The position numbers and the translations under genes were made by a program. DNA of 64,000 nt, taken from IMG/VR virus record IMGVR_UViG_3300043409_001427, positions 18,104-82,103 of that record; one strand, 5' to 3'. The notes under the pieces were generated by a model. It worked only from the letters and a program-made list of their open reading frames with translations, was not told where the DNA came from and searched no databases. This document shows positions 35,099-64,000 of the stretch, in pieces. How positions within the stretch are numbered: position 1 is the first letter of the stretch; the number at the start of each line of letters is the position of its first letter. This stretch comes from a virus.

Positions 35099-35806
35099 AT
35101 GCGTATCAATGAATTATTAGCAGAACAAGAACAACTAGATGAACTAAGCCTTAAGGGGTTAGGTCAGGGCATAGGCAAAGCAGTAGGTGCAGCCGCTGGG
35201 GGAATAGTTCAAGGCGCAAAAAATGTTTGGTCAGGTGCAAAACAAGGTTACGCCGCAGGGCAGGCAGCATTAGCGCCAGGGGCTGATCCAGCCGCTGATC
35301 CAGCCGCCGCAGGCAGTACTGCACCAGCAACGGGCAGCGGCGGCGCTGTAGCAACACCTCCAGCAGGACAAGCACCGGCAGCAACACCTCCAGCAGGACA
35401 AGCACCGGCAGCAACACCTCCAGCAGGACAAGCACCGGCAGCAACACCTCCAGCAGGACAAGCACCGGCAGCAACACCTCCAGCAGGTGGAGAAGCTCCT
35501 GCAAGTCCAGCAGTAGATCAAGCAAGTAAAGTTGGTGTAGGACAAATTAATAAACTTATTCCAACACTACGAACCCGAGATTTAAACAGCGTAAAGAAAA
35601 CTGTTGACGCTACTCTTGTTAAGAAACAAAAGCAACCGGCAGCACCAGCGGCAGCGCCAGCTAAACCAGGAGCGGTGGCACCAGCGGCGCCAACTCAAGC
35701 AGAGCTTGATGCTGATCGAGAAAGATTAATGGGACCAGATAACGGTGGCGCGAACGAAAGCAAGATCGTTAGATTTGAAAGTCGTTTCTTAGGAATGATG
35801 ATTTAA
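35099..35806 (+). CDS. Small Ala/Pro-rich paralogue with tandem PPAGQAPAAT repeats
   Basis: A 235-residue protein starting one base after the stop of the preceding gene. N-terminus MRINELLAEQEQLDELSLKG leads into a glycine-rich amphipathic segment (GQGIGKAVGAAAGGIVQGA), then four and a half perfect copies of a ten-residue Pro/Ala repeat, then SKVGVGQINKLIPTLRTRDL, which matches the C-terminal domain of the preceding protein, and a matching end (FLGMMI against FLGRDI). The pair clearly shares a C-terminal module, perhaps a targeting or packaging tag. LLAE near residue 9 fits the L-x-E consensus of T4-type prohead protease sites, but this is weak evidence. The stop overlaps that of the convergent gene by four bases. 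Confidence 0.7.
   Translation: MRINELLAEQEQLDELSLKGLGQGIGKAVGAAAGGIVQGAKNVWSGAKQGYAAGQAALAPGADPAADPAAAGSTAPATGSGGAVATPPAGQAPAATPPAGQAPAATPPAGQAPAATPPAGQAPAATPPAGGEAPASPAVDQASKVGVGQINKLIPTLRTRDLNSVKKTVDATLVKKQKQPAAPAAAPAKPGAVAPAAPTQAELDADRERLMGPDNGGANESKIVRFESRFLGMMI
35351..35487 (+). repeat. 30-base tandem repeat, four perfect copies plus a partial fifth
   Basis: The unit begins GCAACACCTCCAGCAGGACA and ends AGCACCGGCA. Copies at 35351, 35381, 35411 and 35441 are identical, and a partial copy begins at 35471. It encodes PPAGQAPAAT. Perfect DNA identity, not only protein identity, suggests recent slippage and a length that may vary between isolates. Confidence 0.95.
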
Positions 35807-47319: not shown

Positions 47320-50300
47320 ATGGCTGGAAGCAGAAACTCAGGAACAAGATCAATAGGACCAACAAGTGGAGTTATATCTTCTCCTAAGCCTTCTTCTCAA
47401 ATTGATCAACAGACTAGTAGCACCACTTTAAACTCTATAGTTATTGATGCTGATGGATTTTTAAGATTAGTTGCCGGCTCCTCAATCTACACTGTTATAC
47501 AAAATAATGATTTAAATGTAGGAAACGTTAATAATCCTACAGGCGCCGACTCCATTGCTCCGATTGATCAAACATTATATAGCACAACTGAAGAAAGACA
47601 GTTAGCCAGCGCATATTTTCCCGGCGGCATGGGCATTGAGAAAGACTTAGCAGTTGGCGGATTCATTTATGGTCGTATTGCTCAAGCCAATACTGCCACA
47701 ACTTCTTCAAACATCAGTGTGCTACAAACTAATGCTGACCTTGCGTACTACCCTGTATTCACCACCTCGGAAGGTTTGATTATACAAGGCGCTCAACTAT
47801 ACGGCGACCCTTTTAATCAAGATATTAGTACAGGTGGATTAACTTATAATCCTTTCTATGGAAAACTTTCAATAGAACGGGGAGAAGTCAAATCTGACGA
47901 AGTGTCAACTAGCCCAACAACTGGCGCATTTACAGTAACTGGCGGTGTTGGTATTTTAGGAGATGTGTACATTGGCGGCACTGCAACTGTTGAAGATGCT
48001 ACTAATTCAACCGCAATTGATACAGGCGCATTAGTTGTAACCGGCGGCGTTGGTATTGGAAAAGATCTCAATGTAGGCGGTAACATTTATCCTGCAGAAG
48101 TTAATACTGGAACTATCGGTGCTCAAGATCTTGAATGGGCCGATGCATACTTAAACAAAGTATATACTAAATTTTTAGGAAGTACTGCTAGTAATTTAAC
48201 TATTGCTCCTGGTGGTGGAATGACTGATGTGTTTGGCGACATTAGAGTTCGTGGACAAAATCCAATCGGTACTGCTCCGGTTATTACCAATGTACTATAT
48301 GTTACCATGGATGGTAACGATACCAATGACGGCCGTGCTCAAGATCCTAGCCGTGCTTGTCGAACTATCGGCGGAGCAATCAACAGCCCATACTATCAAC
48401 CAGGAACACAAATCCAAGTTAGCCCTGGCCGATATTTAGAAAACAATCCTCTTGATATGAGCCCCTATACTTCTGTAAGAGGAAGCGATATTCGTACAAC
48501 ATTTATTGAACCAATCAATAAAACACAAGACTTATTCCACATGAATAGTGGATGTTATCTTAACTACATGAATTTCTTAAACGGTCGAAGCGGTCGGTTG
48601 CCCGGGGCATACCAACAGAAATTTAATAGAGGTGCGTATGCTACATCGTTTCCTCCACAAGTGGGCGATAGCAAAATTGATTTATTTCAATCTCCATATG
48701 TTCAAAACTGTACTAATCAAAGCGGTCCGTGGCTGAATGATGGTACAATGTTTGTACCAAATCAAACAGTGCAAGTACCGGCGGCAGTTGGCATGGGTTC
48801 GTGGGAAGCAAACACCACTACCATAACTGTTAGTGTGTCTACAGGAACAATTAGTATTGGACACAGCATCAATGCAGGAAAACAAAATCCCGGATTCTTT
48901 AACGGTCGTACATTGTTGTTAGCCAACAAGCCATTTATACAAAGTCAAACAGTTGCCTGGGTAGATGCAACATTTAATAGCGGATCGTTTACCTACAATC
49001 AATTAAAGTGTTCACGAGATACCGGCCTAGTAGTTAACGCTATTGCCATGGACTTACTACAGGACAGTACCAGTGATAGCCAGTTTGCAGGAATACAATA
49101 TTGGAATCAAGATACCTATACTGGTGAAATTCCTAGCGAAATAACTGCAACAATTGCCGCAATAACATTCTTAAAAAGTATTTCTATTGTTAGTTCTCCA
49201 ACAAATCAATCTACGGTTGATACATTATATGATAAAATTATAGATATACTAAATGTTGGTACGCTAGGTATAACAGATGATTTATCTTATGGCGGATTGC
49301 CATCAACTGATCCGGATGTAATTGCAGACTATCAATATCTACAAGATAACAAAACCACTTTACAAGAAACAGTTATTGATTGGATCACTAGTAACTATCC
49401 ATCATTAGTTTATAGTCAAGAACTTTGTTATAGAGATGTAGGATACATAGTTGACAGTGTCTGCTTTGACTTACTACACGGTGGTAACATACAAAGTATT
49501 AAGAGTGGTGTTTACTATTATAACTACTCTAACACTTCAGCATTAGAAGCAACAAACGAAGTCCCGGCAACTACTGCTGCCTACAATTTTATGAAGAGTA
49601 TTATCTCTAATATCATTGAAGCTAAAGTAATTGCAAATCCGTATCAAGTATCCGTTACTCAGGTAACAGGATTAGATGCAGGCACCGCAAGACAATCTAC
49701 TACTGTTAAAGGATTGATTGATACCATTACAGGAATCATTCGTAACGGTCCAGAATGGGCGGGACCAAAGACACCTATTAACTTAACCACAAACGAAAGT
49801 GTAGGTATAATCAATGCTTACAATCTTTTAATTGCTAATATTCCTTTTATTCAAGCAGAAGTAATTGCGTTTATTGATCAAACAATGAATTCCTTTGAAT
49901 ATAATAGGCAGCTATGCTATAGAGATGCCGGTATCATACTAGAGAATTTAGTATATGATGCTGTGTTTGGTGGTAATGAAAAGAGTGTTGAGAGCGGTAA
50001 AGCATATTACCGTGGAGTAACTAGTGTTATTGCTGGACAAGAAACACAGACGATTGGCGCGATAGATCATATTGTTGACTTATGTGAAAAAATATTAATA
50101 AATGAGGTATGTGATGTTATTTCACCACCCGCAAACATTCCATCAAACAGTCAGGTAATTAATACTAATTTATCTGGCGGCGAAATTATAATTCCAAGTT
50201 TAGAAAAATTAGCCAACATTACAACTAACATTATTCTTAACGGCCCAGACACGGCGCCTGAATTGTATAATGGTCCTGGCCCTGACTCAGCATTCGTAAG

Positions 50301-53300
50301 CGCAGAAATATTGTTACAGGCTAATCGTAAGTTTATTCAAGAAGCTACTATTGATTATATTAATTACAATCTGTGCTTTCCTCCTAAAACATTACCATAT
50401 AATCAAATAAAATGTAAAAGAGATGCAGGTATTATAGTTGACTGTATTGCGGCTGACTTATTATTTCCAACCCCAAGCAACAGTCAAAGTACTTTTGCTG
50501 GAGTACAATATTTTAACCGAACCGGATACACCGGTGCTATTAAAGAACAATTAGGCCCAACTATTGATGCAGTTACATACTTGAGAGACCTAAGTGTTAA
50601 AGTTGTTCAAAATATTACAACTGCAACTGACACTATATTAGGTGTAACTCGTTATACAGATGCTGTGCAAACTACAGCTTCAAATTATGCCACTGCTTCC
50701 GAAGTTGCAACAATCCGTTCAGAATTTGGAATAATACTAACAATATTAAATGGTAGAACCACGGGCTGGTCCGATGAAATTATTCCAAATGGCGGAACAA
50801 TTAGCCCATTCCCTAGTGTGCAGAACACTGTTGACTTATTACAAAATAATATTGATTATCTATCGGAAGAAGTTGTTGCCTATGTTAATGCAACCAATCC
50901 GGGATTCACTTACTCAACAAGTACCTGTGCTAGAGACATTGGATATATTATTGATAGCGTTAGTTTTGATTTGTTGTATAGCGGCAATCGCCAAGCAATA
51001 CAATCTGGTTTAAGTTACTATCAAAGTATTGGTGCAGAAACAGTTATACCCGGCGAAGTACCACAAACCGTAGATGCATTTACATTTATTGGTACACTAA
51101 CATCAATGTTGATCCAAGGCGAAACTTACTATCCTCGACAAACTAAAGTAAAACCTGTACTAGGGTTAGCCCTAGGTGATAGTATTGCTGCCGAGGCAGT
51201 AACTACCATTATTAGCACTATTACAAATATTATTAGCAACGGTCCTACGGTGGCCGCAACATTAGTTCCTATTTCATTAATACAAGATACTTCTACAAGC
51301 ACAGTTAATGCTTATACTATTCTTGTTGCAAACAAAAACTTTATTGCCGCAGAAACAATAAAATATCTAGACGAAACTTACAATGCTGATAGCTTTACCT
51401 ATGATCAAGAATTATGCTATAGAGATACTGGACTGATTATCGATGCAGTAAGCCAAGACATATTATTAGGTGGTAATCAAAAGAGTAGAGAAGCGGGATT
51501 AAGTTACTGGAACCAAGGTTACAACTATGTATCGGGCCAGTTAACTACTACTACTGCGGCAATTAATTATGTTAGAGATTTAGCCCTACAAGTTATTGCC
51601 AACACTACAGTGACAACAGTTACCGGTACTGTAACAACTCAAGTTATTAATCCGTTTTACCAATACGGCGGCGACTATATGCCGCAAGAAGCCGTTATGA
51701 GAAACTTTAATATCATTACTGATATTATCAATAACGGCGCTGAAGCCGCTCCCCCGATTTATGCAGGCGGCGGATTGTTTATCCTGACAGGACTAAATGG
51801 TTCTGCTGTAAAGATCGCACCAACAGTTACTTCTATAACCGAAGTAGATACTAATGTTTACGAAATAGGACTAGACACTTCTACAATTGGCTACGGCGCA
51901 GACGCAACATTATACTTTGGTGATACTGCAATTTTTCCAGCACAATCATCTCAAGTAGAGGACAAGAGTTTAGAATACACAGGTAGCACAAGCACCTGGA
52001 ACGAACGAAAAATTGACTCAATAGGTGCAATTGGCGGCAGTTTAGTTGATGGTGGAGTTATCAGTGACCGAAGCCCAATTCAATCATTTGTTTATGATGC
52101 GTATACTCAATTAAACCAAGGCGGCATTGGTGTTAAAGTTACAAACAACGGATACGCACAGCTAGTTTCTGTGTTTACTATTTTCTGTGATGTTGGTGTT
52201 CTATGTGACAACGGTGGTATTGCTTCTATTACTAACTCCAATTGTAACTTTGGCAATATATCATTGTTGGCAAAGGGGTATGGTGGCCGTAGCTTTAGTG
52301 GTACAGTGGTCAACCCTCCTTACAGATCATATCCATTTAGCCCAGACGGCGAAGGATTACCATATCTTGATCAATTCTATCCAGACGGGTACTGGCCAAA
52401 CCAAGGCGGCCGAGTAGAAATATTTGTACCTGATACTGCCAATAGGCCACACATTGGTCTAGTAATGGAAGTTGAGGCTCCACAGGGACACAAGAACGAA
52501 CAGGGATTTGACGGGTTCTTAAATATCTATCCAAGTACAAGTACCTTGACTACTGGTACAATTACTTTAACCGGAATTAGTACTAATGATGTGTTTATTG
52601 GTAACAATCTTTATATTAGAGATCAATTTGGTCGTCAATTTGACGACAACGGAGTTTGGTATGCAGGAACCGGCACAGTTGTAACTGATGTTGGCTATAA
52701 CAGCATCAGTCTTAATCAAGCGTTAGGCAGCGGCGGCGGTGACCCAACCAATCCAACTTACTTCACATTATATTTCTGTGGAAATAGTTATTATACTGTG
52801 CAGACAAGTGTGGTAGCCAATCAACCATATGCACCAAACAATAATATTTTAAGTGCAAACACTGATCCGTTTTATCAAGGACCTACCGTTAATCAAATTT
52901 CCGCACATATTTCTTCACTGGAGTATTTAAATACTGTCGTAGACAATGTAATTGCTAACCTTACAGTTTCCCCAACCGCGGGAAATACAGCGACACAGGT
53001 CATAAATCAGTCAGTTATCGGTGGCGCAAGTGCTCAAGCATTTATTGATTTAAGATTTGGTTACATAATTGATATTGTAGGTGCAGCCAACATTACTGCG
53101 GCGCAACAGGTAGTTCCACAGAGTCAAATTACAACAGTAGGCACGATTCCTGCAGGTGCAGGTAGCGCAGTTATTTTGATAGTAGAAAATATAGAATTTA
53201 TAGCAGAAGAAATTGCTGCCTATGTTGATGTTAATCTATTAGGTGGAATTGTAAGTTACGATAAATCTAAATGTGTAAGAGATGTAAAACTAATTTTACA

Positions 53301-53739
53301 ACAACTAATTTATGATTTACAAACCGGCGGAAATTATAACAGCGTGTATAGTGGATTAAGTTACTGGTCTCGTACAGGCTCGTATCACATTGTTGAACTA
53401 GGTGAAGCAGTTAACAGACCAGACTTATTTCCAGACGGATCAGTTGTTAATTTCTATCAACGAAGTTACATAAGCGCATCTGGTTACCTATTTGAATATG
53501 TTGGCGCCGGAACAAACTACGGAGCACTTCCTCAACGAGGTGTTGCGGATCCTGTACAGAGCCAAGAAACTGTTCAGCTTAATGCTGGTAAGGTGTTCTT
53601 TACCAGTACAGATCAAAACGGTGACTTCCGTATTGGTCCGGGATTAGTAATAAGTCAAGCTACGGGTGTTCTAAGTGGTAGAACATTTGTCCAATCATTA
53701 TACGCAAATATGACCCCATTCATATTAGCAATTGAATAA
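47320..53739 (+). CDS. Giant fibre protein with beta-helix and repeated Cys-x-Arg-Asp domains
   Basis: A 2139-residue virion protein. Residues about 100-260 hold the shared fibre modules (GIEKDLAVGGFIYG, TGGVGILGDVYIGG, TGGVGIGKDLNVGG). From about 325 the sequence VTMDGNDTNDGRAQDPSRAC, RTIGGAINSPYYQPG and QVSPGRYLENNPLDMS indicates a pectin-lyase-like beta-helix. Then seven copies of a domain marked by C-x-RD-x-G occur at about residues 565, 702, 865, 1031, 1202, 1365 and 1984 (KCSRDTGLVV, LCYRDVGYIV, LCYRDAGIIL, KCKRDAGIIV, TCARDIGYII, LCYRDTGLII, KCVRDVKLIL); the first six are spaced about 137-171 residues. A second beta-helix-like part lies between copies six and seven. Probably a long tail fibre or baseplate-attached appendage. 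Confidence 0.8.
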   Translation: MAGSRNSGTRSIGPTSGVISSPKPSSQIDQQTSSTTLNSIVIDADGFLRLVAGSSIYTVIQNNDLNVGNVNNPTGADSIAPIDQTLYSTTEERQLASAYFPGGMGIEKDLAVGGFIYGRIAQANTATTSSNISVLQTNADLAYYPVFTTSEGLIIQGAQLYGDPFNQDISTGGLTYNPFYGKLSIERGEVKSDEVSTSPTTGAFTVTGGVGILGDVYIGGTATVEDATNSTAIDTGALVVTGGVGIGKDLNVGGNIYPAEVNTGTIGAQDLEWADAYLNKVYTKFLGSTASNLTIAPGGGMTDVFGDIRVRGQNPIGTAPVITNVLYVTMDGNDTNDGRAQDPSRACRTIGGAINSPYYQPGTQIQVSPGRYLENNPLDMSPYTSVRGSDIRTTFIEPINKTQDLFHMNSGCYLNYMNFLNGRSGRLPGAYQQKFNRGAYATSFPPQVGDSKIDLFQSPYVQNCTNQSGPWLNDGTMFVPNQTVQVPAAVGMGSWEANTTTITVSVSTGTISIGHSINAGKQNPGFFNGRTLLLANKPFIQSQTVAWVDATFNSGSFTYNQLKCSRDTGLVVNAIAMDLLQDSTSDSQFAGIQYWNQDTYTGEIPSEITATIAAITFLKSISIVSSPTNQSTVDTLYDKIIDILNVGTLGITDDLSYGGLPSTDPDVIADYQYLQDNKTTLQETVIDWITSNYPSLVYSQELCYRDVGYIVDSVCFDLLHGGNIQSIKSGVYYYNYSNTSALEATNEVPATTAAYNFMKSIISNIIEAKVIANPYQVSVTQVTGLDAGTARQSTTVKGLIDTITGIIRNGPEWAGPKTPINLTTNESVGIINAYNLLIANIPFIQAEVIAFIDQTMNSFEYNRQLCYRDAGIILENLVYDAVFGGNEKSVESGKAYYRGVTSVIAGQETQTIGAIDHIVDLCEKILINEVCDVISPPANIPSNSQVINTNLSGGEIIIPSLEKLANITTNIILNGPDTAPELYNGPGPDSAFVSAEILLQANRKFIQEATIDYINYNLCFPPKTLPYNQIKCKRDAGIIVDCIAADLLFPTPSNSQSTFAGVQYFNRTGYTGAIKEQLGPTIDAVTYLRDLSVKVVQNITTATDTILGVTRYTDAVQTTASNYATASEVATIRSEFGIILTILNGRTTGWSDEIIPNGGTISPFPSVQNTVDLLQNNIDYLSEEVVAYVNATNPGFTYSTSTCARDIGYIIDSVSFDLLYSGNRQAIQSGLSYYQSIGAETVIPGEVPQTVDAFTFIGTLTSMLIQGETYYPRQTKVKPVLGLALGDSIAAEAVTTIISTITNIISNGPTVAATLVPISLIQDTSTSTVNAYTILVANKNFIAAETIKYLDETYNADSFTYDQELCYRDTGLIIDAVSQDILLGGNQKSREAGLSYWNQGYNYVSGQLTTTTAAINYVRDLALQVIANTTVTTVTGTVTTQVINPFYQYGGDYMPQEAVMRNFNIITDIINNGAEAAPPIYAGGGLFILTGLNGSAVKIAPTVTSITEVDTNVYEIGLDTSTIGYGADATLYFGDTAIFPAQSSQVEDKSLEYTGSTSTWNERKIDSIGAIGGSLVDGGVISDRSPIQSFVYDAYTQLNQGGIGVKVTNNGYAQLVSVFTIFCDVGVLCDNGGIASITNSNCNFGNISLLAKGYGGRSFSGTVVNPPYRSYPFSPDGEGLPYLDQFYPDGYWPNQGGRVEIFVPDTANRPHIGLVMEVEAPQGHKNEQGFDGFLNIYPSTSTLTTGTITLTGISTNDVFIGNNLYIRDQFGRQFDDNGVWYAGTGTVVTDVGYNSISLNQALGSGGGDPTNPTYFTLYFCGNSYYTVQTSVVANQPYAPNNNILSANTDPFYQGPTVNQISAHISSLEYLNTVVDNVIANLTVSPTAGNTATQVINQSVIGGASAQAFIDLRFGYIIDIVGAANITAAQQVVPQSQITTVGTIPAGAGSAVILIVENIEFIAEEIAAYVDVNLLGGIVSYDKSKCVRDVKLILQQLIYDLQTGGNYNSVYSGLSYWSRTGSYHIVELGEAVNRPDLFPDGSVVNFYQRSYISASGYLFEYVGAGTNYGALPQRGVADPVQSQETVQLNAGKVFFTSTDQNGDFRIGPGLVISQATGVLSGRTFVQSLYANMTPFILAIE

Positions 53740-56400: not shown

Positions 56401-59400
56401 ATGGCACTAACATCGATCACTAAAGACTTCGTAGTCAGATCCGGTCTTACTTCCGAGGGAACTAATTGGGTAACCTCAAGCACAGGCATGACAGCCACCC
56501 TACAAGTTAACGGTGGCGCTGCGATTGCAAAGAATTTGGTTGTTGGAACAACAGCAACTATTTGGGGCCCGGCAACCCTACAAAATAATTTAACCGTCAA
56601 TGGTTCAACTGTTTTAGGAAATCTAACAGCAACGTTAACTACAGTTACTTCATTACAAGTAACTGGTCCAAGTTTATTCCAAGGACAAACACTATTTACA
56701 GGCGCTGTAAACACATTTAGTGGTTCACTATTTGTTACAGGCACAAACATTTTCACAGTTGGTACAGGAACATCTAACTTTGGCGGTACTGTTGGTATTG
56801 CTGGTGTAACAAGTATCACAAATAACACAACCGCAAACAGCGGCGGCGCAACAGGCGCATTAGTTGTTACCGGTGGTACCTATATTGGTGATAACCTAAT
56901 TGTTAAGAGTACAGCGTGGAACACCGCAACAAATACAGATAACGCAATTTATACTACTGGTGGTATCTACGCAGACAAAGGATTAACAGTTAACGGGACA
57001 ACCTTGTTCAAGGATACTGTTACTTTTGCGGGTACTGCAACTTATGTATATTCTACCAATACAGTTTATACAGATAATATTCTTGAACTACACACGCCAC
57101 CGACAGGAGTTGACACTCCGTGGTTTATAGATGATGGAAAAGACATTGGTCTTCGATTCCACTATTATACAAATTCAACTGATACAAATGCGGCCCTAGT
57201 ACTTGCAAATGATACTAAGGTACTCGAATGGTATAGTGCTGGTGCTGAATCAAATACAGGAACATTCCATAACGCAACTTACGGCACATTCAAAACTGGT
57301 TCTATTTTATTAGATAATTCAACCGGAGCAAACTCAACAACTACCGGAGCTCTACAGGTAAAAGGCGGCGCTGGGGTAGGCGGCAGTATGTATGTTGGTG
57401 GAGTTGTAACTGCTACTACATTTTACGGTGCATTAACTGGTATTGCGACTACAGCAACTAACCTAGCAGGCGGTGCAAGCGGCAGTCTTCCATATCAAAC
57501 GGGTGTTGGTGCAACCGCAATGCTATCGATTGGCGCCAACGGCCAAGTCCTTATGATCACTGGCGGAAATCCGTCATGGACAAATATTTCAGGATTAACC
57601 GCAGGATTCGCAACTACAGCAACTAACATTCTCGGCGGATTAAAAGATCAAGTTCCATACCAAACTGCTCCTGGACAAACGGCATTTAATGTAGGCATGA
57701 CCTTTAATGGTACTATTTTTACCGCTACAAACATCACGGTTAGTGGAACAAGTAATAGTACAGGATACAATAATAATACTGGTGCGTTAATTGTAAGGGG
57801 CGGAGCCGCAATTAACAACGACCTATGGGTAGGCGGAGACATTAACCTACAAGGTAGTTTATATTTAAAAGGTGTTGGCCTTGATGAAATTACAGGTAGC
57901 ACAGGTACATTTGACTTCTTGATTGTTGAAGGAACAGGTACAAGTCTAATAGTTACCGATGGTTCTACGTTTGCTGGTATTACTACAGTTACAAACGCAA
58001 CTCCTTCATTGGGAGCAGGTGGGGCAGGTGCATTCCAAGTTAAGGGCGGCGTGGGTGTTACTAAAGATATCTATGTAGGTACGACTGCTACCGTTGCTGG
58101 TATATTAAATGCAACTAACACAACTCCGTCATTAGGTGTTGCTGCCGCAGGCGCAATACAAGTAAGTGGTGGCGTTGGAATTGCTAAAGATTTATATGTA
58201 GCCACTACTTCTACTTTAGCCGGTTCATTGAGTGTAGGTACTTCATTAACTGTTGCCGGTTACACAAGTTTAACTGGCGGTGCAACAATAAGCGCCGCTA
58301 CAGTTACTAACACATTACTAGTAAATGACATAACACCTTCGTTAGGTTTGGCAACTGCCGGTTCGATACAAACTGCTGGCGGTGTTGGCATTGCTAAAGA
58401 CATCTATGTTGGTACTACTGCCACAATTATTGGTTCGGCAAGCGTTGGCGACGCATTTACTGTTACTGGATTTACTTCATTAAACGGTGGCGCACTTGCC
58501 ACAGCAATGACTATAACAAATAGTACTTCAGTTAGCTCAACAGGAACCGGTGCTTTAATTGTTCCACTAGGTGGAGTCGGAATTGGCGGCGGCCTAGTAG
58601 TTGGCGGTGTAACAAGTTCAACAAACATGACTCCTTCGTTGGGAGTCGCTGGCGCAGGATCAATACAAACTGCTGGCGGTGTTGGAATTGCCAAAGACAT
58701 TTATGTTGGTACAACTGCCACAGTAGCCGGTGTGCTATACGAAACAAACGCAACCCCTGCGTTAGGTGTTGCTGCCGCAGGCGCAATACAAGTAAGTGGT
58801 GGCGTTGGAATTGCCAAAGATATCTATATTGGTTCAACTGCTACAATTGCCGGCATAACATATCACAACAATACAACTCCGACACTAGGCTCTGCATCAC
58901 AGGGTGCAGTACAAACAACTGGCGGTGTAGGTATTGCTAAAGATTTATATGTAGGTACAACTGCTACCGTTGTTGGTATACTTACTGTAAACAACAATAC
59001 TTCAGTTAGCTCAACTACAACCGGTGCATTAATTTTATCGGGTCCAACTTCTGGATTAGCTGTAGGGGGTGGCGGGTTCTTTGGCGGCACGGTAACTGCT
59101 ACTAACCTTGTTATTAGTGGAACAGCAACATTACCAACTAATGTTATTTTAAGTAACTTAACAGTAACAAACCTAACAGTTACTAGCACAACCCCAACAC
59201 TTGGATCTCCGTCCTTTGGCGCAATAGTTGTATCAGGTGGTGTTGGAATTGCCAAAGACATCTATGTTGGTACCACTGCTACATTTAATAGTACAATTGC
59301 TGTAACGGGCATTGCAAGTTTTAATAATGTCACAGACAGTAACGCTACAAATAACGGAAGTGTTATTTTAGCAGGCGGCGTTGGAATTGCTAAAAATCTA

Positions 59401-59793
59401 GTTGTTGGCTCAGCAGTCACTATTGGTAGCGTAACTACGCAAACCGTAGTTACAGCAGTTTACAGTAACAACTTTTTAGATGCTAGCTATACCAGCGGTT
59501 ATATATCTTCCCCGACAGAAATAACTTTAGATACTTACAGTTCAACTACTTATAGAACTGCAAAATATCTAATACAGATCGTAGATGCCGCGCTGGTGCA
59601 TGTTGAAGAAATTATGCTATTCCACGATAGTACTAATGTTTACATGACAGAATACGGTGTAATGTCTAACACTGGAGAATTGGGAGATTTTGACGCAACA
59701 CTTGCGGCCAATACAATCACTCTTAAATTTACTCCAAATTACACTCCTACTTCGATGACAGTTAAAGTGGTTAGAACAACAATAACTCTGTAA
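56401..59793 (+). CDS. Large modular fibre protein (about 14 GGVGI modules)
   Basis: An 1130-residue fibre protein. Almost the whole length is copies of one module, for example TPSLGVAAAGAIQVSGGVGI followed by AKDLYVATTSTLAG; I count about 14, more closely alike in the second half (from about residue 530). An insertion near residues 210-300 (YTDNILELHTPPTGVDTPWF, DDGKDIGLRFHYYTNSTDTN) is a different domain often found in phage fibres. The C-terminal 80 residues (YRTAKYLIQIVDAALVHVEE, VYMTEYGVMSNTGELGDF, KFTPNYTPTSMTVKVVR) repeat the end of the preceding protein. AAAGGAC is near the start codon. A UUCG-loop terminator follows. Confidence 0.75.
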   Translation: MALTSITKDFVVRSGLTSEGTNWVTSSTGMTATLQVNGGAAIAKNLVVGTTATIWGPATLQNNLTVNGSTVLGNLTATLTTVTSLQVTGPSLFQGQTLFTGAVNTFSGSLFVTGTNIFTVGTGTSNFGGTVGIAGVTSITNNTTANSGGATGALVVTGGTYIGDNLIVKSTAWNTATNTDNAIYTTGGIYADKGLTVNGTTLFKDTVTFAGTATYVYSTNTVYTDNILELHTPPTGVDTPWFIDDGKDIGLRFHYYTNSTDTNAALVLANDTKVLEWYSAGAESNTGTFHNATYGTFKTGSILLDNSTGANSTTTGALQVKGGAGVGGSMYVGGVVTATTFYGALTGIATTATNLAGGASGSLPYQTGVGATAMLSIGANGQVLMITGGNPSWTNISGLTAGFATTATNILGGLKDQVPYQTAPGQTAFNVGMTFNGTIFTATNITVSGTSNSTGYNNNTGALIVRGGAAINNDLWVGGDINLQGSLYLKGVGLDEITGSTGTFDFLIVEGTGTSLIVTDGSTFAGITTVTNATPSLGAGGAGAFQVKGGVGVTKDIYVGTTATVAGILNATNTTPSLGVAAAGAIQVSGGVGIAKDLYVATTSTLAGSLSVGTSLTVAGYTSLTGGATISAATVTNTLLVNDITPSLGLATAGSIQTAGGVGIAKDIYVGTTATIIGSASVGDAFTVTGFTSLNGGALATAMTITNSTSVSSTGTGALIVPLGGVGIGGGLVVGGVTSSTNMTPSLGVAGAGSIQTAGGVGIAKDIYVGTTATVAGVLYETNATPALGVAAAGAIQVSGGVGIAKDIYIGSTATIAGITYHNNTTPTLGSASQGAVQTTGGVGIAKDLYVGTTATVVGILTVNNNTSVSSTTTGALILSGPTSGLAVGGGGFFGGTVTATNLVISGTATLPTNVILSNLTVTNLTVTSTTPTLGSPSFGAIVVSGGVGIAKDIYVGTTATFNSTIAVTGIASFNNVTDSNATNNGSVILAGGVGIAKNLVVGSAVTIGSVTTQTVVTAVYSNNFLDASYTSGYISSPTEITLDTYSSTTYRTAKYLIQIVDAALVHVEEIMLFHDSTNVYMTEYGVMSNTGELGDFDATLAANTITLKFTPNYTPTSMTVKVVRTTITL
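58010..59420 (+). repeat. Tandem degenerate fibre-module repeats
   Basis: Within the 1130-residue gene, near-identical DNA segments encoding GGVGIAKDIYVGTTA recur, for example starting at about 58379, 58676, 58798, 58918 and 59237. Spacing varies between roughly 120 and 320 bases. They are alike enough to serve as recombination substrates within and between fibre genes. Confidence 0.85.
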
Positions 59794-60322: not shown

Positions 60323-63300
60323 ATGTCAGTTCAGTTTCAGTTTAGGAGAGGGAACACTACTCAAAACAACAGTTTTACTGGTGCAATAGCAGAGATATCT
60401 ATTGACACTAGTACTAACACAATTAGGGTACATGATGCTATAACAGCGGGCGGCACAAAAATTATGCCAACGCTAAGTTTAACTAATACTCAACGGCTTG
60501 CATTTACTCCGCAAGCTGGACAACTTATCTTTGTAACTAACTATGTTAGTGAAGGAGTAAGCCCAACTTGGATGGGAGACGGTAGTAGCATAGGAGGTAT
60601 AATTGCCGCTGGAAGTGTCGTTGCATCTGCATCAACTGCTACAAATTTAACAGGTGGCACTAACGGTCAAATACCTTTTCAGACTGAACCCGGCGTAACA
60701 AGTTTCTTTGGTCCGGGATCTGCGGGTACTGTCTTAGTAAGTTACGGCTCATCAGCCTCACCTGTGTTTCAAAATACATTAACATTGGCAGGAACAACTT
60801 TGGCCTCTAGTACTACTACCGGCGCATTGGTTGTTGGCGGCGGAGTGGGCGTTGGCGGTAATTTATATGTAGGCGGCGAAATTGTTGCGAACAAGTTAAC
60901 TATTCAATTAACAACAGTTACCACTACATTAGTACAAACAGATGACATAATTCAAACCTTAAATGTTACACAATCAAGTTCAACTACCACCGGCGCCCTA
61001 CAAGTTGCAGGCGGTGCCGGAATTGGTCTAGATATTACTGTTGGGGGAAGTATCAGAGTAGCCAGTGTTATTACAGCAACAACATTTATCGGCAACCTAA
61101 CAGGTAATGTTACAGGTAATGGAACAGGCAACTTACATTACCAAAGCGCAAACAATACAACAAGTTTCTTAAGTACTGGTACAACTGGCCAAATACTAGT
61201 TGCCGCAGGTGGATCCCCAGTATGGACAACAACATCTAGCATTCAAGTAGGATATGCCGCAAATATTTTAGGTCTTGGCACAGGCGGCATCTTATATGAA
61301 AGTGCAAATAACACTACAAGTATTTTAAGTACTGCCACAACTGGCAATTTCCTACAAGCAAACTACAACGGTGCTCCTACTTGGACAACAACTGCCAGTA
61401 TGTATGTTGCTCGTGCGGTCATGGCTGATATTTCAGCAGGTGGCGCAAATACTGCAACTAATATCTATGGTGGTGATTCATGGCAAATTCCATATCAGTC
61501 AGCACCAAGTACGACATTATTTGCCAACTCGGGTACAACTGGTCAGTTTTGGCAAGCGGCAACCAATGGAGCTCCTACTTGGACAACGACTGCGAGCATC
61601 TATGTTAACAGTGCGGTAAGTGCTGAAAAATTATATGCAGGAACTGCTGGACAAATTGTTTATCAATCAGCACCTAGTACAACATCATTTGTCAGTACAG
61701 CAACTACTGGTAACTTCTTACAAGCAAACTATGTAGGTGCTCCTACCTGGACCACAACTGCCAGTATGTATGTCAACGATGCAGTTAAATCAACTAACCT
61801 ACGAGCAGGTACTGCCGGTCAACTACATTATCAATCAGCTGTAGATACAAGTGGATTTATTTCAACTGCTACTACAGGTAACTTCTTACAGGCAAACTAT
61901 GTAGGTGCTCCTACATGGACAACAACTGCCAGTATCTATGTCAATAGCTCAGTAGCTTCTGAAAAATTATATGCAGGTACTGCTGGACAAATTGTTTATC
62001 AATCAGCGGTAAGTACCACTGCGTTTATAAGTACTGCTACAACTGGCAATTTCTTACAAGCAAATTATGTAGGTGCTCCTACATGGACAACAACTGCAAA
62101 TATCTATGTGGCCAATGCGGCTATCGCAACCAATGTTCGTGCAGGTACTGCTGGACAAATTGTTTATCAATCAGCTGTAGATACAAGTGGATTTATTTCA
62201 ACTGCGACTACCGGTAACTTCTTACAAGCTAACTTTGTAGGTGCTCCTACATGGACAACAACTGCCAGTATGTATGTTGCTCGCGCCGTCGTTGCTGATA
62301 CCGCAAGTGGTGGATCTGCTCAAGTTAATACTGTGGCGCAGACAAACGGTGCAAGTTACTATCCAACATTTGTTGATAGTAATAATGCTAGTGCGGCAGC
62401 AGAAAGTGTTTACACTACAAGTAGTTTTAGTATTAATCCGGCTACTGGTAACATTTCAGTTGCGGGAACAGCGGGGTCAAACAACGCCACTTCTGGTGCT
62501 TTACAAATAGTTGGAGGAGTCGGAGTAGGCGGAAGTATGTATGTTGGTGGTGTTGTGACAGCAACTACATTCTTTGGTAACTTAACCGGGACAGCAACTG
62601 GAGCAAACACCGCTACAAACTTATTTGGTGGTAATGCATGGCAAATTCCATACCAATCAGCACCAAGTACGACATTATTTGCTAACTCGGGTACAACTGG
62701 CCAGTTCTGGCAGGCAGCAACTAATGGAGCTCCTACTTGGACTTCAACAAGTAGCATCTATGTTAACAGTGCGGTAAGTGCTGAAAAATTATATGCAGGA
62801 ACTGCTGGACAAATTGTTTATCAATCAGCCGCAAGTACCACTGCGTTCTTAGGTACAGCAACTACTGGTAACTTCTTACAAGCCAATTATGTAGGTGCTC
62901 CTACTTGGACAACCACTGCAAATATCTATGTGGCTGACTCTGTTATTGCAACCAATGTTCGTGCAGGTACTGCTGGACAAATTGTTTATCAATCAGCCGC
63001 AAGTACCACTGCGTTCTTAGGTACAGCAACTACTGGTAATTTCTTACAGGCAAACTATGTAGGTGCTCCTACTTGGACCACAACTGCCAGTATGTATGTT
63101 AACCGAGCTGTCGTTGCTGATAGTGCAAGTGGTGGTGCAAACACCGCTACAAACTTATCAGGTGGTAATGCATGGCAAATTCCATATCAGTCAGCGCCAA
63201 GTACGACATTATTTGCCAGCTCGGGTACAACTGGCCAGTTCTGGCAAGCAACAACCAATGGAGCACCTGCGTGGACAACCACAGCTAACATTTATGTGGC

Positions 63301-64000
63301 CAATGCGGCTATCGCAACCAATGTTCGTGCAGGAACTGCTGGACAAATTGTTTATCAATCAGCTGTAGATACAAGTGGCTTTGTTGGCCCAGGTACAGCA
63401 GGACAACTTTTAGTAAGTGCTGGCGCAAGTGCTCCTGTGTATACAAACACAGCAAGTATATATGTTGCTAACGCTGTTACAGCCAATAACCTAGCCGCTG
63501 GCACCACAGGACAAATTCCTTATCAAACAGCGGCTGGCGCAACCAGTTTCTTTGGGGCAGGTACATTTGGTCAATTCTTAATGAGTACAGGTGCCAATGC
63601 GCCGGTATACCAAAGTACGCTAACACAGGCCGACGGCAACATTATTATTACCAGCAATACTGCGGCCACTTCAACAATCACAGGTGCGCTACAAGTTGTC
63701 AATGGCGGTGTTGGTATTGGCGGTAACTTATATGTTGGTGGTGAGATTGTTGCACAGAAATTAACAATCCAATTAACAACGGTTACAACTACACAAGTTA
63801 CAACTGATGACATTATCAGTACATACAATTATACAAATGCCACATCAACTACTACAGGTGCATTACAGGTAGCAGGCGGTGCAGGTATTGGTAGAGATTT
63901 ATGGGTTGGTGGTAACATAACTGTTCTAGGAACGATCAATGCTAGCGTTACTGGTGTAAGTACAACGGCCACAAACATCGCTAACGGAACTGCTGGACAA
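60323..64000 (+). CDS. Repetitive tail fibre with Mtd-N-like start (3' end outside window)
   Basis: The frame starting at the ATG at 60323 is open to the end of the window (1226 codons seen). The first 50 residues (QFRRGNTTQNNSFTGAIAEI, SIDTSTNTIRVHDAITAGG) have the RRG-T-Q...GEI..D....VHD....GG pattern of the N-terminal domain of phage tropism and fibre proteins such as Mtd. Shared modules follow (GALVVGGGVGVGGNLYVGG, GALQVAGGAGIGLDITVGG), then about ten copies of a 56-residue unit of type TTGNFLQANYVGAPTWTTTA, SIYV, AGTAGQIVYQS. Near residue 670 a different segment (YYPTFVDSNNASAAAESVYT, INPATGNISVAG) is another common fibre motif. GAGAGAATA precedes the ATG weakly. Likely receptor-binding fibre. 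Confidence 0.75.
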   Translation, partial: MSVQFQFRRGNTTQNNSFTGAIAEISIDTSTNTIRVHDAITAGGTKIMPTLSLTNTQRLAFTPQAGQLIFVTNYVSEGVSPTWMGDGSSIGGIIAAGSVVASASTATNLTGGTNGQIPFQTEPGVTSFFGPGSAGTVLVSYGSSASPVFQNTLTLAGTTLASSTTTGALVVGGGVGVGGNLYVGGEIVANKLTIQLTTVTTTLVQTDDIIQTLNVTQSSSTTTGALQVAGGAGIGLDITVGGSIRVASVITATTFIGNLTGNVTGNGTGNLHYQSANNTTSFLSTGTTGQILVAAGGSPVWTTTSSIQVGYAANILGLGTGGILYESANNTTSILSTATTGNFLQANYNGAPTWTTTASMYVARAVMADISAGGANTATNIYGGDSWQIPYQSAPSTTLFANSGTTGQFWQAATNGAPTWTTTASIYVNSAVSAEKLYAGTAGQIVYQSAPSTTSFVSTATTGNFLQANYVGAPTWTTTASMYVNDAVKSTNLRAGTAGQLHYQSAVDTSGFISTATTGNFLQANYVGAPTWTTTASIYVNSSVASEKLYAGTAGQIVYQSAVSTTAFISTATTGNFLQANYVGAPTWTTTANIYVANAAIATNVRAGTAGQIVYQSAVDTSGFISTATTGNFLQANFVGAPTWTTTASMYVARAVVADTASGGSAQVNTVAQTNGASYYPTFVDSNNASAAAESVYTTSSFSINPATGNISVAGTAGSNNATSGALQIVGGVGVGGSMYVGGVVTATTFFGNLTGTATGANTATNLFGGNAWQIPYQSAPSTTLFANSGTTGQFWQAATNGAPTWTSTSSIYVNSAVSAEKLYAGTAGQIVYQSAASTTAFLGTATTGNFLQANYVGAPTWTTTANIYVADSVIATNVRAGTAGQIVYQSAASTTAFLGTATTGNFLQANYVGAPTWTTTASMYVNRAVVADSASGGANTATNLSGGNAWQIPYQSAPSTTLFASSGTTGQFWQATTNGAPAWTTTANIYVANAAIATNVRAGTAGQIVYQSAVDTSGFVGPGTAGQLLVSAGASAPVYTNTASIYVANAVTANNLAAGTTGQIPYQTAAGATSFFGAGTFGQFLMSTGANAPVYQSTLTQADGNIIITSNTAATSTITGALQVVNGGVGIGGNLYVGGEIVAQKLTIQLTTVTTTQVTTDDIISTYNYTNATSTTTGALQVAGGAGIGRDLWVGGNITVLGTINASVTGVSTTATNIANGTAGQ
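61130..63990 (+). repeat. 168-base-type tandem repeats in the last fibre gene
   Basis: GGTGCTCCTAC(C/T/A)TGG-type sequence encoding GAPTWTT recurs about ten times (for example near 61370, 61568, 61736, 61907, 62075, 62249, 62730, 62900 and 63065), with a base unit of 168 bases (AACTTCTT at 61712 and again at 61880). Copies differ mainly in a short stretch around YVNSAV and YQSAPSTT. Confidence 0.9.

What the first reader, a model, noticed from the sequence alone, without database searches (positions are those of the whole stretch)
60323..64000. Fibre with Mtd-N-like head and 56-residue repeats carrying a variable patch
About ten copies of a 168-base unit differ mainly around two short stretches (YVNSAV/YVNDAV/YVANAA and YQSAPSTTS/YQSAVDTSG), while the rest is almost constant. 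The same variant patches recur in non-adjacent copies, as if copied between units. That pattern suggests gene conversion within the fibre.
Basis: seen in the sequence. Interest (0 to 1): 0.6.

Follow-up and report, generated by a model that had tools for sequence, protein, structure and literature searches.

The report
Phage fibre with recombining repeats
A large bacterial virus carries a long tail-fibre gene built from about a dozen related 56-residue blocks that have clearly traded pieces of DNA with one another; unexpectedly, the traded part is mostly the conserved frame, while the variable patches usually stay in place.

Summary
The repeat array is real. ORF 60323-64000 is a tail-fibre gene cut off by the contig end. 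It has an Mtd_N head and 13 units of 56 aa: nine clean (U3-U11) and four divergent. Complete relatives end in a Peptidase_S74 chaperone, so this is a receptor-facing fibre of a T4-type phage whose capsid is closest to jumbo phages. Recombination between units is well supported: a PHI-type permutation test (0 of 2000), no distance correlation between front and rear segments of the window's units, and exact 71-79 nt tracts shared by diverged units. Compared with a sister phage (L005), unit 4 has the U9/U10 front patch but its own rear patch. "Constant except two patches" holds for protein only; silent differences are similar across the unit (0.15-0.30 per codon). And between sister phages the rear patches keep their place (silent divergence 0.079, flank 0.082), while the conserved frame is the scrambled part (0.532). 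No reverse transcriptase was found, so no diversity-generating retroelement is seen. Most likely: T4-style homologous recombination with short tracts seeded in the frame, plus selection or heterology holding the patches. Effect on receptor binding is inferred. New variant of a known kind.

The parts
60323..64000 (+). Fibre ORF, first 1226 aa, 3' end missing (contig ends here)
60338..60436 (+). Mtd_N domain (aa 6-38)
   Evidence: PF18454 E=1.9e-6
60323..61120 (+). Non-unit N-terminal part (Mtd_N, a GTNGQ-like module, two TTGALQV..GGVGIGGNLYVGG modules); used as divergence yardstick, 96.2% nt to L005
61121..61444 (+). Divergent units U1 and U2
61472..61639 (+). Unit U3, W-type frame, rear patch NSAVSAEKLYA
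61640..61807 (+). Unit U4, G-type, front PSTTSF, rear NDAVKSTNLRA
61808..61975 (+). Unit U5, front VDTSGF, rear NSSVASEKLYA
61976..62143 (+). Unit U6, front VSTTAF, rear ANAAIATNVRA
62144..62311 (+). Unit U7, front VDTSGF, rear ARAVVADTASG
62312..62629 (+). Spacer modules between blocks (includes TSGALQIVGGVGVGGSMYVGG)
62630..62797 (+). Unit U8, W-type, nearest to U3 (90%)
62798..62965 (+). Unit U9, front ASTTAFLG, rear ADSVIATNVRA
62966..63133 (+). Unit U10, front identical to U9, rear NRAVVADSASG
63164..63331 (+). Unit U11, mosaic: W-type front of U3/U8, rear of U6 (1 difference in 42 nt)
63332..63667 (+). Divergent units U12 and U13
61595..61671 (+). 77-nt exact copy shared with 62753-62829 (U3/U4 and U8/U9 junctions), inside stretches that differ at 51 of 336 nt
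62801..62871 (+). 71-nt exact copy shared with 62969-63039 (U9, U10)

Best explanation
This is the N-terminal and repeat-shaft part of a long, receptor-facing tail fibre of a T4-superfamily phage (capsid closest to jumbo phages): an Mtd_N head, a shaft of 56-residue repeats and other repeated modules, and (in complete relatives) a C-terminal S74 intramolecular chaperone that would trimerise the fibre. The repeat DNA undergoes ordinary homologous recombination between units (short-tract exchange plus block duplication and deletion), probably driven by the phage's own recombination-dependent replication. Exchange is seeded in the conserved 21-residue frame (TTGNFLQANYVGAPTWTTTA), whose silent variants are therefore scrambled between units; the flanking variable patches usually keep their position because heterology ends the tract and/or selection preserves them, but tracts sometimes carry a patch to a new position and make new front/rear combinations. 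Shown here: mosaicism, tracts, scrambling of the frame, positional stability of rear patches. Inferred: the enzymes, tract length, non-reciprocity, selection, trimeric fold, and any effect on receptor binding.
For: PHI-type test: 0 of 2000 permutations as low as observed, for all nine units and for six G-type units alone. Distances in the rear segment are not predicted by the other segments in the window (front-rear r=0.08, mid-rear r=-0.09). Exact tracts of 77, 71 and 79 nt inside diverged pairs, permutation p about 1e-4 to 5e-5. Sister phage L005: U4 front 1/39 from window U9/U10 but 12/39 from its own counterpart, while its rear is identical (0/42) to window U4; U3 frame 5/63 from window U8 against 13/63 from window U3. 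Silent divergence L005-window: flank 0.082, rear 0.079, front 0.236, frame 0.532; frame against rear p=6e-8, stable when any unit is dropped. Frames within the window (6.5/63) are closer to each other than to counterparts in L005 (10.0/63). Full-length relatives have Mtd_N plus S74 (L009, L057, L035) or S74 (L006, L010); the L006 tip matches tail-fibre distal subunits. Recombination genes: SbcCD (gp46/47)-type pair in the window, RecA-family gene in three longer relatives.
Against: Only one closely related allele (L005) was available and it is partial, so rates, donor and direction are not measured; donors could be other phages rather than units of the same gene (L005 frames match no sampled unit exactly). 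Both alleles are metagenome assemblies of repeats. In the combined set of relatives, rear and front distances within a unit do correlate (r=0.61 nt), driven by deep unit types, so independence holds for the window units, not for the whole family. Concerted evolution is weak across the family (frame identity 0.83 within against 0.78 between phages).
Confidence: 0.78

Rival explanations
1. Segmental duplication and deletion only: the array grew by copying blocks (U3-U7 to U8-U10 with two units lost), then diverged by point mutation under constraint; no conversion.
For: The 386-residue offset between U3 and U8 and the order of closest matches (U3-U8, U6-U9, U7-U10 rear) fit one block duplication.
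Against: Does not explain different closest partners for front and rear of one unit (U10 front identical to U9, rear nearest U7; U11 front U3/U8, rear U6), the PHI-type result, L005 U4, or frame silent divergence more than six times the flank.
Confidence: 0.08
2. Assembly artefact: short-read assembly joined different units or strains at shared words, creating false mosaics.
For: Contigs break inside these repeats; L005 ends exactly at the end of a 79-nt exact repeat, and the first 61 bases of L011 occur twice in L010.
Against: Assemblers broke at exact repeats of about 61-80 nt, whereas apart from the listed long tracts units of one contig share at most about 50 nt exactly. L006, L007 and L012 (three metagenomes) are identical over the shared fibre, and L010, L011 and L018 agree. 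Silent scrambling affects all five units.
Confidence: 0.1
3. A diversity-generating retroelement, suggested by the Mtd-like head, writes the patches.
For: Mtd_N domain present; Mtd of the Bordetella phage is the classic target (own knowledge).
Against: No reverse transcriptase (PF00078) in the 82-kb contig or in seven related contigs up to 207 kb. Patch variants are shared whole blocks with silent differences elsewhere, not changes confined to one place.
Confidence: 0.02

Closest known systems
T4 gp37 tip duplications (Tetart et al. 1996, J Mol Biol 258:726, cited in PMC6365445)
   Same: Repeats inside a T4-type fibre gene recombine and change the adhesin (title and citation seen; details from own knowledge)
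   Different: There copy number of a small tip domain; here a shaft array with scrambled frame and mostly position-stable patches
Enterococcus phage EfV12-phi1 tail-fibre duplications (PMC6365445)
   Same: In-frame tandem duplication within a long fibre gene of a myovirus
   Different: 1.8-kb copies arising within 8 days, reported not to generate sequence diversity; here old, diverged units with mosaic structure
BACON tandem repeats in crAss-like phages (PMC6949934)
   Same: Tail-associated tandem domains evolving by internal duplication and by horizontal transfer of single domains
   Different: Unrelated domain; whole-domain duplications and transfers described; the words recombination and gene conversion do not occur in its text
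S74 (endosialidase chaperone) tail fibres of T4-type phages
   Same: C-terminal PF13884 in relatives, matching fibre distal subunits
   Different: Very long modular shaft (relatives 1860-2686 aa) and, in most, an Mtd_N head
Bordetella phage Mtd / DGR target
   Same: Mtd_N domain only
   Different: No reverse transcriptase found; variation is in shaft repeats

Membership tests
S74-chaperone long tail fibre | C-terminal Peptidase_S74 / intramolecular chaperone domain | tested here: inconclusive
   This copy is truncated; met in relatives L006, L009, L010, L057, L035
S74-chaperone long tail fibre | Place in a structural/tail gene cluster of a tailed phage | tested here: met
   Same strand and contig as a major head protein and other tail-fibre-family genes
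S74-chaperone long tail fibre | Trimeric beta fibre | tested here: inconclusive
   AlphaFold of U4-U6 as a single chain failed, pLDDT 41.9
Mtd / DGR system | Mtd_N domain | tested here: met
Mtd / DGR system | Reverse transcriptase nearby | tested here: not met
   (contigs incomplete)
Repeat array under gene conversion (concerted evolution) | Paralogous copies in one genome more alike than positional counterparts in a sister genome | tested here: met
   Frame: 6.5/63 within window, 10.0/63 between counterparts; within L005 9.5/63, so weak there
Repeat array under gene conversion (concerted evolution) | Mosaic units with conflicting partners along their length | tested here: met
Repeat array under gene conversion (concerted evolution) | Non-reciprocal transfer, donor unchanged | not testable with these tools
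   Needs parent and offspring sequences or reads
T4-superfamily (jumbo) phage | gp23-type major head protein and T4-type tail genes | tested here: met
   Head protein 67.7-70.5% identical to Phosso, GAP32, CBB and relatives; phrog_138 and baseplate wedge families. Jumbo genome size itself not testable: contig is a fragment

The most novel reading that the evidence does not exclude
The fibre works as an RT-free shuffling device: conserved frames act as recombination platforms kept alike by conversion, so that patch cassettes (rear of one unit plus front of the next) can be moved between positions and between co-infecting phages, giving combinatorial variation of the fibre shaft that is selected for.
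Probability: 0.12. Interest if true: 0.65.

Novelty: new variant of a known kind. Interest (0 to 1): 0.42.

Why it matters
It gives a clear case, from two sister phages, in which recombination inside a fibre repeat array can be seen at silent sites: frames scramble while the patches hold position. If that is general, fibre arrays of large environmental phages would be natural laboratories for conversion tract length and for separating neutral exchange from selected patch changes. It also warns that patchy protein variation in repeats is not by itself evidence of patch conversion.

Tried and rejected
DGR: no reverse transcriptase in the contig or seven relatives. Extending the contig: not possible, it ends at 64000. 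Structure of U4-U6: pLDDT 41.9, not used, so patches could not be placed in 3D and no fold search was run. Sequence match to solved structures: none for the window protein; S74 domain only for L006. Cassette idea (rear of unit k goes with front of unit k+1): TNxR rear is followed by [DN]TSG front in 8 of 14 against 0 of 10 otherwise, p=0.006, but chosen after looking, with related sequences, and Mantel in the window alone is not significant; kept as a suggestion. Long inverted repeats in the gene: only four pairs, 14-18 nt, nothing of note. Literature searches for gene conversion in phage tail-fibre repeats gave no direct precedent in the held library, which misses most subscription journals.

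Full report
What is there. The window is the last 64 kb of an 82,103-base viral contig, and the contig ends with the window. ORF 60323-64000 is therefore a truncated gene of at least 1226 codons. It begins with an Mtd_N domain (PF18454, E=1.9e-6). Units of 56 residues can be aligned without gaps: nine clean ones (U3-U11), with U1, U2, U12 and U13 divergent. They fall into blocks with other repeated modules between them. Relatives complete at the 3' end run to 1860-2686 residues and end in a Peptidase_S74 chaperone (L006, L009, L057, L035); that region of L006 matches tail-fibre distal subunits. The head protein on the contig is 67.7-70.5% identical to those of jumbo phages Phosso, GAP32, CBB and relatives. 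The gene is thus most likely a long receptor-facing fibre of a T4-superfamily phage; host unknown.

Is the variable-patch pattern real? At protein level yes. Among the six G-type units, replacement differences per codon per pair are 0.04 in the frame (aa 22-42), 0.29 in aa 9-21 and 0.57 in aa 43-56. Silent differences are 0.27, 0.30 and 0.22. So mutations are not concentrated in the patches; the frame is held constant as protein while its DNA varies as much as elsewhere.

Is there recombination between units? Yes, on several lines. A PHI-type permutation test gives 0 of 2000 permutations as low as observed, for all units and for G-type units alone; distance matrices of front, frame and rear are uncorrelated among G-type units. 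Exact tracts of 77 nt (U3/U4 and U8/U9), 71 nt (U9, U10) and, in L005, 79 nt (U2 and U7) lie within diverged pairs; shuffling the codon columns rarely gives such runs (p about 1e-4 or below). U11 joins a W-type front to the rear of U6 with 1 difference in 42 nt.

Test against a sister phage. L005 shares the N-terminal part of the fibre at 96.2% nt. In L005 the front of U4 is the U9/U10 version of the window (1 against 12 differences of 39), while its rear is identical to window U4 (0 of 42); its U3 frame is nearest window U8 (5 against 13 of 63). Over five units, silent divergence is 0.082 in the flank, 0.079 in the rear patch, 0.236 in the front patch and 0.532 in the frame; frame against rear p=6e-8, and dropping any one unit leaves p below 5e-6. 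Frames within the window differ by 6.5 of 63, less than from their positional counterparts (10.0).

Could assembly explain it? Contigs do break in these repeats, and L005 ends exactly at the end of its 79-nt repeat, so its U7 rear, which lies within that repeat, should be treated with care. But other shared stretches between units are at most about 50 nt in the window and about 40 nt in L005, below the 61-80 nt at which the assemblers broke; three assemblies of the L006 fibre type are identical where they overlap, and L010, L011 and L018 agree. I consider artefact unlikely but not excluded.

How it probably works. T4-type phages replicate by recombination (established knowledge). The window carries an SbcCD (gp46/47)-type pair, and three longer relatives carry a RecA-family gene; none was found in this fragment. 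Strand invasion between units would be easiest in the conserved frame; tracts would end at the heterologous patches, giving scrambled frames and stable patches, with occasional patch transfer. Selection for patch position would give the same picture; the two are not separated here. No reverse transcriptase was found in eight contigs. Across phages the same unit types recur with only a weak excess of within-phage similarity (frame 0.83 against 0.78; rear 0.54 against 0.53), so exchange between phages, or long-term retention of types, matters too.

Comparison. Duplication within fibre genes is known: T4 gp37 (Tetart et al. 1996, as cited in PMC6365445), EfV12-phi1 (PMC6365445) and BACON arrays in crAss-like phages (PMC6949934). 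I found no held paper describing sub-unit conversion in a phage fibre array with scrambled frame and stable patches, but the library is partial. I rate it a new variant of a known kind, of moderate interest.

Noticed in passing
window 56401-59793 and L005 5107-8535: The neighbouring structural gene, built of GGVGIAKDIYVGTTATVAG repeats, also differs between the sister phages by an internally rearranged stretch (around aa 600-660, 12-residue length difference), so array rearrangement is not special to the fibre.
   Followed up: partly
window 47320-53739, residues 1329-1431 of the protein: A 2139-aa tail-fibre-family protein scores above the Pfam cut-off for Phycobilisome (PF00502, E=1.5e-6); possibly a spurious match in a tail protein, not checked.
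   Followed up: no
window 35350-35487: Perfect 30-nt tandem repeat (4.6 copies, AGCAACACCTCCAGCAGGACAAGCACCGGC) inside a 235-aa ORF, encoding an ATPPAGQAPA linker.
   Followed up: no
L006 10637-13169: Downstream of the fibre in a relative lie lectin-like genes (Laminin_G_3 in both tested), each ending in a similar RGRYG/RTRYG tail, perhaps adhesins.
   Followed up: no
L010 2771-3424: A 217-aa protein downstream of the fibre (phrog_1574, unknown function) has relatives in 101 stretches of viral contigs; a useful marker for collecting more fibre alleles.
   Followed up: partly
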